Assembly (NCBI GenBank): GCA_948144175.1
Contig: CANXME010002559.1
Coordinates: 1,054,001-1,118,000 of the forward strand
Direction of reading: 5' to 3'
Length of the DNA: 64,000 bases
DNA from: Closterium sp. NIES-65
Taxonomy: Eukaryota > Streptophyta > Zygnematophyceae > Desmidiales > Closteriaceae
This document shows, one piece after another, positions 14,331 to 41,112 of this stretch. The position numbers and the translations under genes were made by a program. The notes beneath the pieces were generated by a model that did not search any database, had not been told where the DNA came from, and saw only the letters and a list, made by a program, of their open reading frames with translations. Numbering within the stretch: position 1 is the first letter of the stretch; each line of letters starts with the position of its first letter.

Positions 14331-14560
14331 AGCGTCTCTTGATGCTTGCCCATGCATGCACCACCCAATGCTCACCACGTGTAGAGAGGTGCATTTTGAG
14401 GCGCCTCAAAATACACCTGCTGCGATGAGAGCTTCTCTTGATGCTTGCCTATGCATGCACCACCCAATGCTCACCACGTGTAGTGAGGTGCATTTTGAGG
14501 CGCCTCAAAATACACCTGCTGCGATGAGAGCGTCTCTTGATGCTTGCCCTGTTAACGGGA
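14331..14560. repeat. Tandem duplication with GCGC-core palindromes at the junctions
   Basis: A segment of about 100 bp (GATGCTTGCC...CACCACGTGTAG) is present twice and begins a third time. Each junction carries TTTTGAGGCGCCTCAAAA (14,394-14,411 and 14,493-14,510). The arms GGTGCA and TACACC extend the symmetry with one mismatch. Confidence 0.85.
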
Positions 14561-14639
14561 AAGGAGTGTTGGCCCCGCCCTCGCTTGGGCAACGCCGACA
14601 ACTTGGTCGGATGTACGGTAGTAGCAGCCGACCGCCCAC

Positions 14640-38500: not shown

Positions 38501-41112
38501 ACTTAGTGTGACTGATTGCTGTGTGGTAACTCACACTACACCCACCCAAACCCTGCTCCACTCCTCCCAGCCCCTCCCTCCTCTTCGCCACCTCCATCCA
38601 ACCACACAGCTGGTGCAATATGGGATGGGGCAGGATCTTTTTTATTGCGCAGCTGGTGAAGGATATAGGTAGTGATGACATCAAAGCGTTTGGCAAGTGG
38701 TTAAATTGGTGTCCGGGTGTCAGGCGGGACATTGCACGCCTGACACCTGGACTAGTTTTGAGGCGCCTCAAAACTAGAATTGGTGTCTGGGTGTTGGGCG
38801 GGACATTGCACGCCTGACACCTGGACACCAATTTAACCATTTTCCAAACGCTTTGATGTCATCGCTTCCCATATCCTTCACCATCCGCTTTGATGTCATC
38901 ACCTCACTGCGCACTTGGTGCACTGGGAACTGGGTCGGCACGTGTTTGACCGCCTGCTATTAGCTGCGGATTGGGCCATCAACAACGCTGACTGGCTCTG
39001 CTCTCCGCATCTGCCTTCTTCTCCCACTACCCCCGCATCTACTCCCCCACAACTGCCTTGCAGGATGTGTGGTACTGGCTGCTGCGCTGTGGTGACTCAC
39101 AATACCCCAACCAAACCCTGCTCCACTCCTTCCAACCCCTCCCTCCTCTCCCCACTCCCGCATTGACACAGTTGGTGCATTGAGAGCTGGGGCGAGATGT
39201 ATTCGACCGGCTCTTGTTGGATAGGGATTGGCCATCAACAACGGCAACTGGCTGTGGCTCTCCCCTCCCTCACCCTGCTCCACTCCTCCCAACCACTCCA
39301 TCCTCCCCATCCCTGCATTGACACAGTTGGTGCATTGAGAGCTGAGCCAAGATGTATCCGCGTCCGCCTTCTTCTCCCGGTATTACCGCATCTACTCCCC
39401 CATCACCCATCTGGGCTGGACCAGTGTGACAGCCTGCTGTGCTGTGGTGTGAATTACTCTACACCCACCAAAACCCTGTTTCCCCTCCCTCTCTCTTCCC
39501 CCTCCCTCTCTCTTCTCCCAACCCCTCACACGTCAGTTGGTACACTGGGAGCTGGGGCGAGACGTGTTCGACCGGCTGTTGGTGGACTCTGATTGGGCCA
39601 TCAACAACGGCAACTGGCTTTGGCTCTCCGCCTCTGCCTTCTTCTCCCAGTACCACCGCATCTACTCCCCTGTCACCTTTGGCAAGAAATACGACCCCTC
39701 GGGGAAATTCATCCGCCACTTCCTGCCTGTTCTGAAAGGTGTGTTCTGAAAGGTGTGTTCTGAAAGGTATGTTCTGAAAGGTATGTTCTGAGTCGACTCA
39801 AAGCACTCCCAGTACCACCGCATCTACTCTCCCGTCACCTTTGGCAAGAAATACGACCCCTCGGGGAAATCATCCGCCGTTTTCTGCCTGTTCTCAAAGG
39901 TGTTTATCCCATGCTTATACTGTTTCATCTTTTTTTTTTTTTTTTTTGGTAGAATCTTCAGCACTTACCAGTGCAACATTTTATTGATTGTGGTGAAGGT
40001 CGTGTTGTGCTTGCATATTCACCCGCCAGAGATGCCGTCGCAGCACATCTACAAGCCATAGGAGCACCACATTGGCTACTCTGCCCCCCCTTCCACCTGC
40101 ACACGCGCCCGCCAGACATGCCTTCGTAATACATTTACGAGCCGTGGACGACACCGCAATGAATCTTGAGTATACTCAACCACTTCCCCCCACCTCTCCT
40201 CCCACTACATCCACGCTCACGACACCAGACATGTCTTCGCAGTACATTTACGAGCCATGGACAGCACCTCTGGCTGTGACTTCTGAGTCCGCTAACTTTT
40301 CCGCCGCCAACCCCACATTCGCCCCCCCAACACCTGCACACTCACCCACCAGACATGCCGTCGCAGTACATTTACGAGCCATGGACCGCACCTCTGGCTG
40401 TGCAACGCAAGGCCAACTGCATCATTGGGAAGGACTTCCCTCGTCCGAGTGAGTTGTTATGGAAATGAATTTAATTCACAAGCATTTTCCACTACTAGGT
40501 TCCCTCCTTCCCTGTAAGTCCTTATTTTCCTCTTCTTTTGGAACATATTTGCGTGGTTTACGGCCTGTCCCTTATGATCACGCCTGTGCCCGGTCTTTGT
40601 TTCTTAATTTGTCATGGCATTTGATTGTCTTTATTCACACTTTCCTTTTCTCCATCCCTTGTCCGCACCCAGTTGTCGACCATGCGGAGGCAAGTAAGCG
40701 GCGTCGAGTGTTGAGTCGACTAAGTTATAAGCATCTCTGTGCATTCCTTACCTCTCTTGCACTCTCAGTTGTCGACCACGCGGAGGCCAGTAAGCGGTGT
40801 CGAGATGTAATGGGGGCAGCCTACGCTGCAAACCGTGCGGCTGCCGGCGGTGCGAGCACATCAGGAAATCAGCCAGTTACCGCAACAACAGATCCTGCTA
40901 CATCAAATGATCGTGCCGTATCAAGAAAGTCTACATTACATGCCAAAGAAGGCATTAGTGGTGATGGGGTGGATGTAGGAGGTAATTCAAATCAGAAGAG
41001 AAGACGGGGTTCTGTTAATAAGGATGGTTCTCGAGAGATTGAGAGAGGCGAGGGCAGGTCTGATCCAATGAAAAAGAAGCAGAAGAGAATAGATGATATG
41101 TTTAGAGGTTGA
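32510..41112 (+). CDS. (6-4) photolyase / animal-type cryptochrome, 13 exons, 713 codons
   Basis: Flavoprotein of the photolyase/cryptochrome family: light-driven repair of UV (6-4) photoproducts or blue-light sensing. Exons: 32,510-33,003; 33,128-33,206; 33,352-33,423; 33,664-33,744; 34,187-34,462; 34,668-34,736; 36,088-36,174; 36,600-36,698; 37,659-37,829; 38,253-38,324; 39,537-39,738; 40,353-40,448; 40,769-41,112. All phases agree. The N-terminal photolyase domain shows [15 protein letters not shown] (about residue 17) with a Ser-rich insert of about 70 residues. The FAD domain shows [49 protein letters not shown] (484-489 hold both His of (6-4) enzymes), [14 protein letters not shown] and YIYEPWTAP. 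The tail of about 110 residues has KRRR and KKKQKR nuclear-import-like runs and ends near [11 protein letters not shown] at 32,510 (GCCATGG) is chosen; the frame is open upstream to 31,865, so a transit peptide is possible. Family placement is firm; repair versus sensing is open. Confidence 0.93.
33272..33316. repeat. AT microsatellite in photolyase intron 2
   Basis: ATATATATAAT-type repeat of about 45 bp, ending 35 bp before exon 3. Confidence 0.95.
33424..33512. repeat. GGCAT pentamer repeat in photolyase intron 3
   Basis: GGCATGGCAT/GGGATGGCAT pentamers begin directly after the exon 3 donor and run for about 80 bp. Confidence 0.95.
33785..33930 (+). repeat. Copies of photolyase exon 4
   Basis: The phrase encoding [20 protein letters not shown] plus donor GTGTTTG is repeated at about 33,852-33,925. 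A shorter piece (GAGCTGAAATTGTCAACAAG) lies at about 33,793. The functional exon is 33,664-33,744, so the copies lie in intron 4 behind it. Confidence 0.85.
34880..35690. repeat. Tandem series of about ten 67-100-bp units, most with a palindrome, photolyase intron 6
   Basis: The phrase CTGCAGAGGGATTAGCTGC recurs at about 34,885, 34,954, 35,021, 35,089, 35,158, 35,246, 35,310, 35,408, 35,600 and 35,663. Between most copies stands TTTTGAGGCGCCTCAA(AA) or TTTTGAGTGGACTCAAAA, and some palindromes have CTAG or ACTAGT arms. Units differ in length and some palindromes are decayed. Confidence 0.9.
35715..36030 (+). repeat. Copies of photolyase exon 7 start with ACGT palindromes between them
   Basis: Copies of the exon 7 lead-in (CTCTGTGTGTGTCACAGAAAT) with GGGGAGCCCATTTCT and GAGTTTGAGAAGCC lie at about 35,728, 35,838 and 35,978. 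TTTTGAGACGTCTCAAAA at 35,788-35,807, and a second ACGT palindrome with arms of about 24 bp at 35,930-35,983 (GTGAAAAAAGGAGTG...CACTCCTTTTTTCAC), stand between them. The functional exon is 36,088-36,174. Confidence 0.88.
36200..36545 (+). repeat. Three copies of photolyase exon 8 start
   Basis: [17 protein letters not shown] coding phrases with acceptor occur at about 36,203-36,250 (decayed), 36,341-36,400 and 36,470-36,540. The functional exon is 36,600-36,698. The inserted intervals are C-rich intron sequence. Confidence 0.85.
36721..36880. repeat. 55-bp direct duplication split by a GCGC palindrome
   Basis: GGGATGGGAATGATG...GACAGGATTTTT occurs at 36,731-36,784 and 36,821-36,873. Between the copies stands TTTTGAGGCGCCTCAAAA with arms GTGTG/CACAC. 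It lies in photolyase intron 8. Confidence 0.93.
36885..37600 (+). repeat. Six partial copies of photolyase exon 9 start
   Basis: Phrases related to [19 protein letters not shown] with CAG acceptors occur at about 36,870-36,930, 37,005-37,065, 37,090-37,150, 37,248-37,310, 37,360-37,440 and 37,505-37,590. The functional exon 37,659-37,829 is the last and only complete one upstream of the donor. A TCGA palindrome lies at about 37,073-37,090. Confidence 0.88.
37885..38005 (+). pseudogene. Decayed downstream copy of photolyase exon 9
   Basis: GGGCAGCAGCATCTGCAG is followed by TAG where the exon has CAG, then by [15 protein letters not shown] sequence to a donor GTAAGA. The stop and a TGA later make it unusable. 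Confidence 0.85.
38008..38195. repeat. 16-bp tandem repeat ACCTGGTGCAGGCAGA
   Basis: About eleven copies, some with ACCTGATGCAGGCAGA, in photolyase intron 9, directly behind the decayed exon 9 copy. Confidence 0.95.
38655..38882. repeat. Fold-back of about 228 bp centred on a GCGC palindrome
   Basis: The left arm (GGTGAAGGATATAGG...GGTTAAATTGGTGTCC, from 38,655) reappears inverted on the right (GGACACCAATTTAACC...ATATCCTTCACC, to 38,882). The centre is CTAG-TTTTGAGGCGCCTCAAAA-CTAG (18-bp core 38,756-38,773). A 49-bp segment next to the core is also directly duplicated (38,704-38,752 and 38,778-38,826). It lies in photolyase intron 10. Confidence 0.92.
38890..39430 (+). repeat. Three partial copies of photolyase exon 11
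   Basis: [24 protein letters not shown] phrases occur at about 38,915-39,010, 39,168-39,250 (in-frame TGA after the acceptor) and 39,325-39,420. The functional exon is 39,537-39,738. Confidence 0.85.
39735..39910 (+). repeat. Copies of the photolyase exon 11 end and donor
   Basis: The donor phrase TTCTGAAAGGTGTG repeats four times (39,730-39,790). It is followed by a CTGAGTCGACTCAAAG palindrome relic and a second copy of the exon end ([18 protein letters not shown]), frame-shifted by one missing base in the GGGAAATCATCCG segment. Confidence 0.85.
40020..40280 (+). repeat. Three copies of photolyase exon 12 start
   Basis: GACATGCCNTCGNARYACAT followed by TTACGAGCC occurs at about 40,030-40,065 (decayed), 40,115-40,150 and 40,225-40,275. 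The functional exon is 40,353-40,448. Confidence 0.85.
40671..40730 (+). repeat. Copy of photolyase exon 13 start
   Basis: CAG|TTGTCGACCATGCGGAGGC followed by AAGTAAGCGGCG copies the acceptor and [11 protein letters not shown] start of exon 13 at 40,769. It then breaks into GTTGAGTCGACTAAG, half of the palindrome. Confidence 0.82.

What the first reader, a model, noticed from the sequence alone, without database searches (positions are those of the whole stretch)
14394..39800. A dispersed palindrome family TTTTGAG-NNNN-CTCAAAA whose central tetramer changes but stays self-complementary
Seen: cores TCGA (for example 21,104; 22,537; 28,783; 37,073), GCGC (14,394; 14,493; 16,913; 36,791; 38,756), ACGT (23,254; 35,788) and AATT (about 16,950). 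All four observed core types are self-complementary, although only 1 in 16 random tetramers is, so the symmetry of double-stranded DNA is being kept or created, not just a hairpin stem with a free loop. Decayed forms (TGGA core; GAGTCGATTC) show what happens without maintenance. Inference: arms are either rewritten from each other (template switching inside a hairpin) or the joint arises by opening and joining hairpin ends. I saw none inside the retrotransposons at 41,159-59,066.
Basis: partly seen in the sequence, partly recalled or inferred. Interest (0 to 1): 0.9.

Follow-up and report, generated by a model that had tools for sequence, protein, structure and literature searches.

The report
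Palindromes inserted at staggered DNA breaks
In a green alga that appears to be a Closterium, tens of thousands of tiny mirror-image DNA sequences look like insertions made where DNA broke unevenly, each apparently built from two copies of the same short half, and some seem to have grown into satellite DNA.

Summary
By its retrotransposon's relatives the window is Closterium DNA. The 874-Mb genome has 30,327 exact TTTTGAGNNNNCTCAAAA sites, 4 for the reversed control. Cores are mostly TCGA, GCGC, ACGT or AATT (53 of 57 sites in sampled stretches); of prokaryote and virus matches 8 of 239 are self-complementary.

New: the palindromes look like insertions. 65 of 77 exact sites lie between abutting direct repeats; a looser test passes 69 of 77, and 305 of 1500 random places. 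In 38 clean events repeats are 16-71 bp, cuts show no motif and the two insert ends vary independently. Usually one or two target bases match the copied sequence.

Best reading: both ends of a staggered break copy the same short half and are joined head to head, which makes any core self-complementary at birth. No maintenance is seen: 29 broken satellite units, none compensated; arms decay no slower than flanks (rough). Flank-palindrome-flank is a two-unit repeat; the 45-bp satellite may be one expanded. Template and polymerase are unknown.

The parts
1..14049 (.). 45-bp satellite, 312 units; each unit = 24-bp palindrome TGCTTTTGAGTCGACTCAAAAGCA + 21-bp spacer
14320..14549 (.). 99-bp tandem repeat with two GCGC palindromes (14394, 14493)
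16878..17004 (.). nested pair: GCGC palindrome (insert 16908-16929) between 16-bp direct repeats 16892-16907 / 16930-16945, and AATT palindrome 16940-16971; the pair lies between 25-bp repeats 16878-16902 / 16980-17004
21104..21121 (.). TCGA palindrome without a detected flanking repeat
22452..22903 (.). 105-bp and 79-bp tandem repeats with four TCGA palindromes (22532, 22637, 22753, 22832); the last two, copies of each other, carry an extra half in tandem
23210..23387 (.). ACGT palindrome at 23255 flanked by an imperfect ~15-bp duplication; the related uninterrupted sequence is at 23398-23521
   Evidence: read by eye; the scripted test did not call it
25116..25361 (.). 53-bp tandem repeat with decayed TCGA palindromes
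26160..26212 (.). two adjoining TCGA palindromes (the first with one mismatch)
28572..28898 (.). duplication with 126-bp offset holding a decayed and an exact palindrome (28656, TTGA core; 28782, TCGA core)
34884..35699 (.). 68-bp tandem repeat and its extension, in which palindromes with GCGC and TGGA cores occupy corresponding places (read by eye)
35706..35877 (.). ACGT palindrome insert 35776-35807 between 70-bp direct repeats (65 of 70 identical)
35932..35981 (.). long ACGT palindrome, 50 bp with one mismatched pair; a related long-armed copy lies in L257:4603
36730..36873 (.). GCGC palindrome insert 36784-36819 between 54-bp direct repeats (53 of 54 identical)
37016..37142 (.). TCGA palindrome insert 37065-37092 between 49-bp direct repeats (88% alike) of photolyase exon sequence
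38704..38826 (.). GCGC palindrome insert 38753-38777 between 49-bp direct repeats (46 of 49 identical)

Best explanation
Each palindrome is an insertion made during repair of a staggered chromosome break. Close to shown: in most cases the palindrome sits between two copies of a stretch of target (16-71 bp in the clean events), as filling-in of a break with staggered cuts would leave; the cuts have no visible sequence preference; the two insert ends vary independently; a few target bases at the junction match the copied sequence; the fixed point is the centre. Inferred: both free 3' ends are extended on the same short template, each starting at a microhomology, each running to the template's end (...TTTTGAG plus two bases), and the two identical tails are then joined head to head. 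That joint is self-complementary whatever the last two bases are: tails ending TC, GC, AC or AA give TCGA, GCGC, ACGT or AATT. Outer arms differ from event to event because templates differ, yet mostly match within an event because both ends used the same one. The palindrome is perfect at birth and then decays. Flank-palindrome-flank is a two-unit tandem repeat and can expand into minisatellites and the 45-bp satellite. Least certain: whether the template is RNA (a form of twin or dual priming of reverse transcription) or DNA, and which polymerase copies it.
For: Direct repeats abut 65 of 77 exact palindromes; 48 of these are single-palindrome events, 15 of them with identical repeats (11 of the 48 were later set aside as array copies; this script was not run on random places of these loci). 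A looser script passes 69 of 77 palindromes and 305 of 1500 random places; with tight junctions 41 of 77 and 121 of 1500. Second set, 36 stretches chosen by AATT core: 35 of 51 sites. In 38 events kept by filters on repeat identity and insert length: repeats 16-71 bp (the lower limit is set by detection), no base preference at 76 cuts (largest chi-square 7.4, 3 df), left and right tail lengths uncorrelated (r = 0.12; equal in 3 of 38, 2.5 expected). Microhomology: 25 informative events, mean 1.44 bases, 4 without, against 0.43 after shuffling (0 of 20,000 shuffles reach it); second set 12 events, 1.33, 2 without, against 0.38, P = 5e-5. Symmetric outer arms of 4 bp or more in 35 of 126 sites, 0.5 expected: 30 strings, 23 that are not a shorter version of another, 18 groups by core and last four bases. 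A half ending exactly at the core and followed at once by a second half at two loci, L253:2018 and 22753/22832. No compensation and no slower decay. Of 300 direct-repeat pairs with an 8-80 bp insert, 65 hold this palindrome or a decayed one, against 45 of 3000 random windows. Fourteen arrays, each with its own spacer.
Against: Tandem duplication is common here anyway (305 of 1500 random places; 235 of 300 repeat pairs with inserts hold no exact or decayed palindrome). In 8 of 26 events the outer arms are not fully matched (24 of 127 positions). Single-ended products are rare: six half sites lack the other arm, three of them the tandem halves named above; so two-ended tailing would have to be nearly obligatory. 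No source template or enzyme was found; Rfam gave nothing above its cut-offs in six loci. Microhomology at both ends also fits capture of a ready-made palindrome, and tandem halves could come from slippage. In the AATT-chosen set 16 of 51 sites show no flanking repeat, and in its first 20 loci the contrast is weak (14 of 25 sites against 81 of 321 random places).
Confidence: 0.55

Rival explanations
1. A mobile palindrome is copied or captured whole. A hairpin RNA or a short palindromic DNA fragment is joined into staggered breaks by microhomology, with its ends trimmed; the four core types are four sub-families.
For: Same insertions, repeats and microhomology. Recurring long-armed sub-family, for example L257:4603 and window 35932-35981. 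Half sites are rare.
Against: It does not explain how many different outer arms (18-30, by how one groups them) and four cores all come to be symmetric without two matching mutations each time, since no arm correction is seen. Fixed ends expected of a unit are absent.
Confidence: 0.28
2. Palindromes came first and, as fragile hairpin-forming sites, caused local tandem duplications around themselves.
For: Tandem duplications are frequent in this DNA; many palindromes lie in arrays.
Against: Duplicating a segment that holds a palindrome leaves two palindromes; the single events have one, between the two copies. Microhomology to the insert is not predicted.
Confidence: 0.08
3. One reading: arms are kept alike by rewriting one from the other inside a hairpin (quasi-palindrome correction).
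For: Would also give symmetric cores and symmetric, variable outer arms.
Against: 29 of 312 satellite units broken, none compensated; arm pairs mismatch more often than flanking repeats (32 of 414 against 70 of 2095, rough).
Confidence: 0.05
4. A selected binding site for a dimeric protein, spread and kept by selection.
For: Conserved half-site TTTTGAG and strict symmetry.
Against: Symmetry of the four spacer bases and of the variable outer arms is not needed for binding; copies sit in duplicated exon sequence and satellite alike and decay.
Confidence: 0.03

Closest known systems
Twin priming and 'dual priming' of LINE-1 (PMC2837659, passages seen)
   Same: Two 3' ends of a staggered break each prime copying, giving inverted pieces between target site duplications, with microhomology at the target junctions.
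   Different: There a long mRNA with a poly(A) tail; here short tails with no poly(A), a fixed centre, no cut motif and tens of thousands of similar products. No reverse transcriptase was linked to them here.
Telomerase-made inserts at double-strand breaks (PMC2246262, passages seen)
   Same: Short templated inserts at breaks, sometimes with target duplication, with excess microhomology: about 25% of loci lack it where 75% is expected. Here 4 of 25 and 2 of 12 lack it.
   Different: The insert is not telomeric repeat and is palindromic.
Short palindromic repeats of Volvox carteri organelles (PMC2670323, passages seen)
   Same: Small dispersed palindromes (14-79 nt in the plastid) in introns and between genes, often nested.
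   Different: Spread in organelle DNA; the usual loops TTTA or TAAA are not self-complementary; 'target site' and 'direct repeat' do not occur in that text.
MITEs and other inverted-repeat DNA transposons (recalled)
   Same: Small non-coding inverted repeats between target duplications.
   Different: They have fixed ends and a fixed duplication length; here ends and length vary and the centre is fixed.
Introner elements and intron gain at breaks (recalled; search listings only)
   Same: Small repeated inserts inside genes with target duplication.
   Different: Whether these palindromes carry splice sites or make introns was not tested.

Membership tests
MITE / inverted-repeat DNA transposon | target duplication of constant length | tested here: not met
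   16-71 bp, spread over the range
MITE / inverted-repeat DNA transposon | conserved terminal sequence | tested here: not met
   ends vary independently, r = 0.12; outer arms differ between copies
LINE-type (twin or dual primed) retrotransposition | target duplication of variable length with two inverted pieces | tested here: met
LINE-type (twin or dual primed) retrotransposition | microhomology between target 3' ends and template | tested here: met
LINE-type (twin or dual primed) retrotransposition | endonuclease cut motif | tested here: not met
   76 cuts, no position significant
LINE-type (twin or dual primed) retrotransposition | poly(A) or common 3' tail at the start of the copy | tested here: not met
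   tail starts listed, read by eye
LINE-type (twin or dual primed) retrotransposition | identified source RNA and reverse transcriptase | not tested
   BLAST of a long tail did not complete
Volvox-type organelle palindromes | organelle location | tested here: not met
   874-Mb assembly, gene pieces in separate frames as if intron-split, LTR retrotransposons; nuclear location is inferred from these
Volvox-type organelle palindromes | loop usually TTTA or TAAA | tested here: not met
   cores TCGA, GCGC, ACGT, AATT
Hairpin arm correction | compensated double changes in array units | tested here: not met
   0 of 29 broken satellite units
Hairpin arm correction | arms kept better than flanks | tested here: not met
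   (rough comparison)

The most novel reading that the evidence does not exclude
A class of mobile sequence defined by its centre and not by its ends: a short template is copied onto both ends of staggered breaks, the two copies are fused head to head, and the resulting flank-palindrome-flank is a ready-made two-unit repeat that seeds satellite DNA and exon duplications throughout a nuclear genome. Symmetry is a by-product of two-ended copying, so every mutation in the template appears mirrored in the next copies.
Probability: 0.4. Interest if true: 0.9.

Novelty: new variant of a known kind. Interest (0 to 1): 0.8.

Why it matters
It would give a concrete, testable origin for satellite DNA: an insertion with a long target duplication is already a tandem repeat. 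It offers a natural record of how staggered breaks are repaired in an alga close to land plants, with possibly tens of thousands of events in one genome. It also removes the need for any maintenance of palindromes. Two neighbouring puzzles become testable with strain assemblies: why tandem duplication is so common in this genome, and why decayed exon copies sit beside the intact exon.

Tried and rejected
Maintenance of arms by correction: tested on the satellite and on 46 flanked copies, not supported. Fixed-end transposon: ends and duplication length vary. Outer arms as mirror copies of the target: looked for by eye in the sequences; possible cases at 16947 and 16912, otherwise not seen. Known RNA as template: Rfam on six loci gave 15 matches, all below cut-off, mostly microRNA hairpin models. 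Proteins in other strains carrying the satellite's translation: none found. Bacterial or viral source: matches there do not share the core symmetry. Literature: 10 searches of an open-access library; I saw no nuclear palindrome family of this kind in their listings, and the Closterium genome-size paper (PMC10407611, passages seen) has no occurrence of 'palindrom' in its main text. Rows dropped: 11 of 48 events as array copies before the tests, and of the other 37 those with unequal or equally long tails before its microhomology count (25 left); 23 of 35 before that; events outside the identity and length filters before (38 left); sites within 120 bp of a stretch end and four re-fetched stretches. 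The AATT-chosen loci L266-L305 were kept apart from the core counts but are part.
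Full report
WHAT IS THERE. I read the window as nuclear DNA of a Closterium alga: the best-scoring relatives of the gypsy-type retrotransposon frame at 49876-51972 are Closterium proteins, one 97% identical over 75% of the query in Closterium sp. Yama58-4 (lineage), and the unnamed assembly it lies in has 874,075,685 bases in 2400 contigs. It carries a gene related to ligand-binding receptors on the minus strand (ANF_receptor matches at 23394-24239 and 28260-28667; a glutamate-receptor-like gene is my inference from a further match below cut-off), a photolyase/cryptochrome gene on the plus strand, and retrotransposons.

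THE OBSERVATION. Outside the satellite there are 20 exact TTTTGAGNNNNCTCAAAA sites, all between 14.3 and 38.8 kb; 18 have a self-complementary core and two have TGGA. The first 14 kb, which the finding left out, are a 45-bp satellite of 312 units with the same palindrome, 283 of them exact. Genome-wide there are 30,327 exact sites and 4 for the reversed pattern; 2,601 have AATT. In twenty 10-kb stretches, two beside the window and 18 chosen because sites had been listed there, 57 sites have TCGA 26, ACGT 13, GCGC 11, AATT 3 and four cores one step away from these. In prokaryotic and viral DNA the same arms have a self-complementary core in 8 of 239 cases.

INSERTIONS BETWEEN DIRECT REPEATS. 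Self-comparison of the window showed palindromes between two copies of a 49-54 bp sequence at 36730-36873, 37016-37142 and 38704-38826. Over the exact sites then in hand, 65 of 77 lie between abutting direct repeats (that script has no random-place control on those loci). A looser script passes 69 of 77 sites against 305 of 1500 random places at least 300 bp from a palindrome, and 41 of 77 against 121 of 1500 when the junctions must be tight. Some pairs of repeats are identical: 60 of 60 bp at L245:4299, 23 of 23 at L246:8337, 21 of 21 and 19 of 19 at L257. A second set, 36 stretches chosen by AATT core, gave 35 of 51 sites; in its first 20 loci the figure is 14 of 25 against 81 of 321 random places. 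An earlier test in the window alone gave 16 of 30 against 85 of 600. So the duplication is real, but this genome is rich in tandem duplication in general. Searching the other way, 300 direct-repeat pairs with an 8-80 bp insert were found; 42 inserts hold an exact and 23 a decayed palindrome, against 45 of 3000 random windows; the other 235 hold neither.

ANATOMY OF AN EVENT. In 38 clean events the repeats are 16-71 bp long (the lower limit is the detection limit), 76 cut sites show no significant base preference, and the lengths of insert to the left and right of the centre are uncorrelated (r = 0.12). The bases of target next to the shorter side match the sequence seen on the longer side: mean 1.44 in 25 events, 4 without, against 0.43 after shuffling, and 1.33 against 0.38 in 12 further events, 2 without. 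Beyond TTTTGAG the arms match each other for 4 bp or more in 35 of 126 sites (0.5 expected), in 30 strings, of which 23 are not a shorter version of another and which fall into 18 groups by core and last four bases. In 26 events with outer arm on both sides 18 match perfectly and 8 do not. At two loci a half ends exactly at the core and a second half starts at once (L253:2018; 22753 with its tandem copy 22832); slippage could also produce these.

HOW IT MOST LIKELY WORKS. A transposon has fixed ends; here the centre is fixed and the ends are free. I infer that both 3' ends of a staggered break are extended on the same short template that ends in TTTTGAG plus two bases, starting wherever a few bases pair, and that the two tails are joined head to head. 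Two identical halves joined this way give a self-complementary core for any last two bases, so TC, GC, AC and AA explain TCGA, GCGC, ACGT and AATT, and any change in a template appears mirrored in its copies. Dual priming, proposed for LINE-1, is the nearest published scheme that I saw (PMC2837659, passages); telomerase copying at breaks shows a similar excess of microhomology (PMC2246262, passages). Neither template nor enzyme was identified. The main rival, capture of a ready-made palindrome, fits the repeats and the microhomology but not the many different yet symmetric arms.

NO MAINTENANCE SEEN. In the satellite 29 of 312 units have a broken palindrome, of four kinds of change, and none has the matching change on the other side. 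In 46 flanked palindromes with up to 3 mismatches, 7.7% of arm pairs mismatch and 3.3% of flanking positions differ; the comparison is rough, because the script favours well-matched repeats and array copies weigh on it, but it shows no slower decay of the arms. The simplest reading is that perfect palindromes are young ones.

CONSEQUENCES. Flank-palindrome-flank is a tandem repeat of two units. In 326 kb, 14 arrays of 3 to 312 palindromes at constant spacing were listed, each with its own spacer (part of this DNA was chosen for its palindromes), and the 45-bp satellite unit is a 24-bp palindrome plus a 21-bp spacer, as this origin predicts; that step is inference. In the photolyase gene one exon has seven further partial copies within 1.1 kb, and family palindromes, one exact and two decayed, lie between some of them.

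LIMITS. The genome search answered twice only, so the full core table, the search for the template and the counts of the other cores are open; strain comparison could not be done with these tools. The assembly's read type is unknown to me, so an assembly effect on array length cannot be excluded. The fetched stretches are not a random sample of the genome.

Noticed in passing
14754-14932: A 40-bp tandem repeat with a different perfect palindrome, GTCGAGCTGCAGCTCGAC and GTCGAACTGCAGTTCGAC: another symmetric double change, in a second palindrome family.
   Followed up: no
1-14049: The 45-bp satellite shows longer-range order: runs of unit variants recur in the same sequence along the array.
   Followed up: partly
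36866-37923: One photolyase exon has seven additional partial, decayed copies around the intact one.
   Followed up: partly
17119-17777, 19854-20744, 25406-26461: Stretches of about 130-140 bp repeated in tandem, some with receptor-like coding sequence, the copies diverged.
   Followed up: no
L240-L259 and window 14031-41100: About one random place in five lies between direct repeats; tandem duplication without an exact palindrome nearby is common in this DNA.
   Followed up: partly
L283 around 245; L240 around 3844: Two inserts have one tail of nearly 60 bases, which may show more of the template sequence.
   Followed up: partly
63610-64000: Another tandem repeat (28-bp unit) running off the window end.
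   Followed up: no
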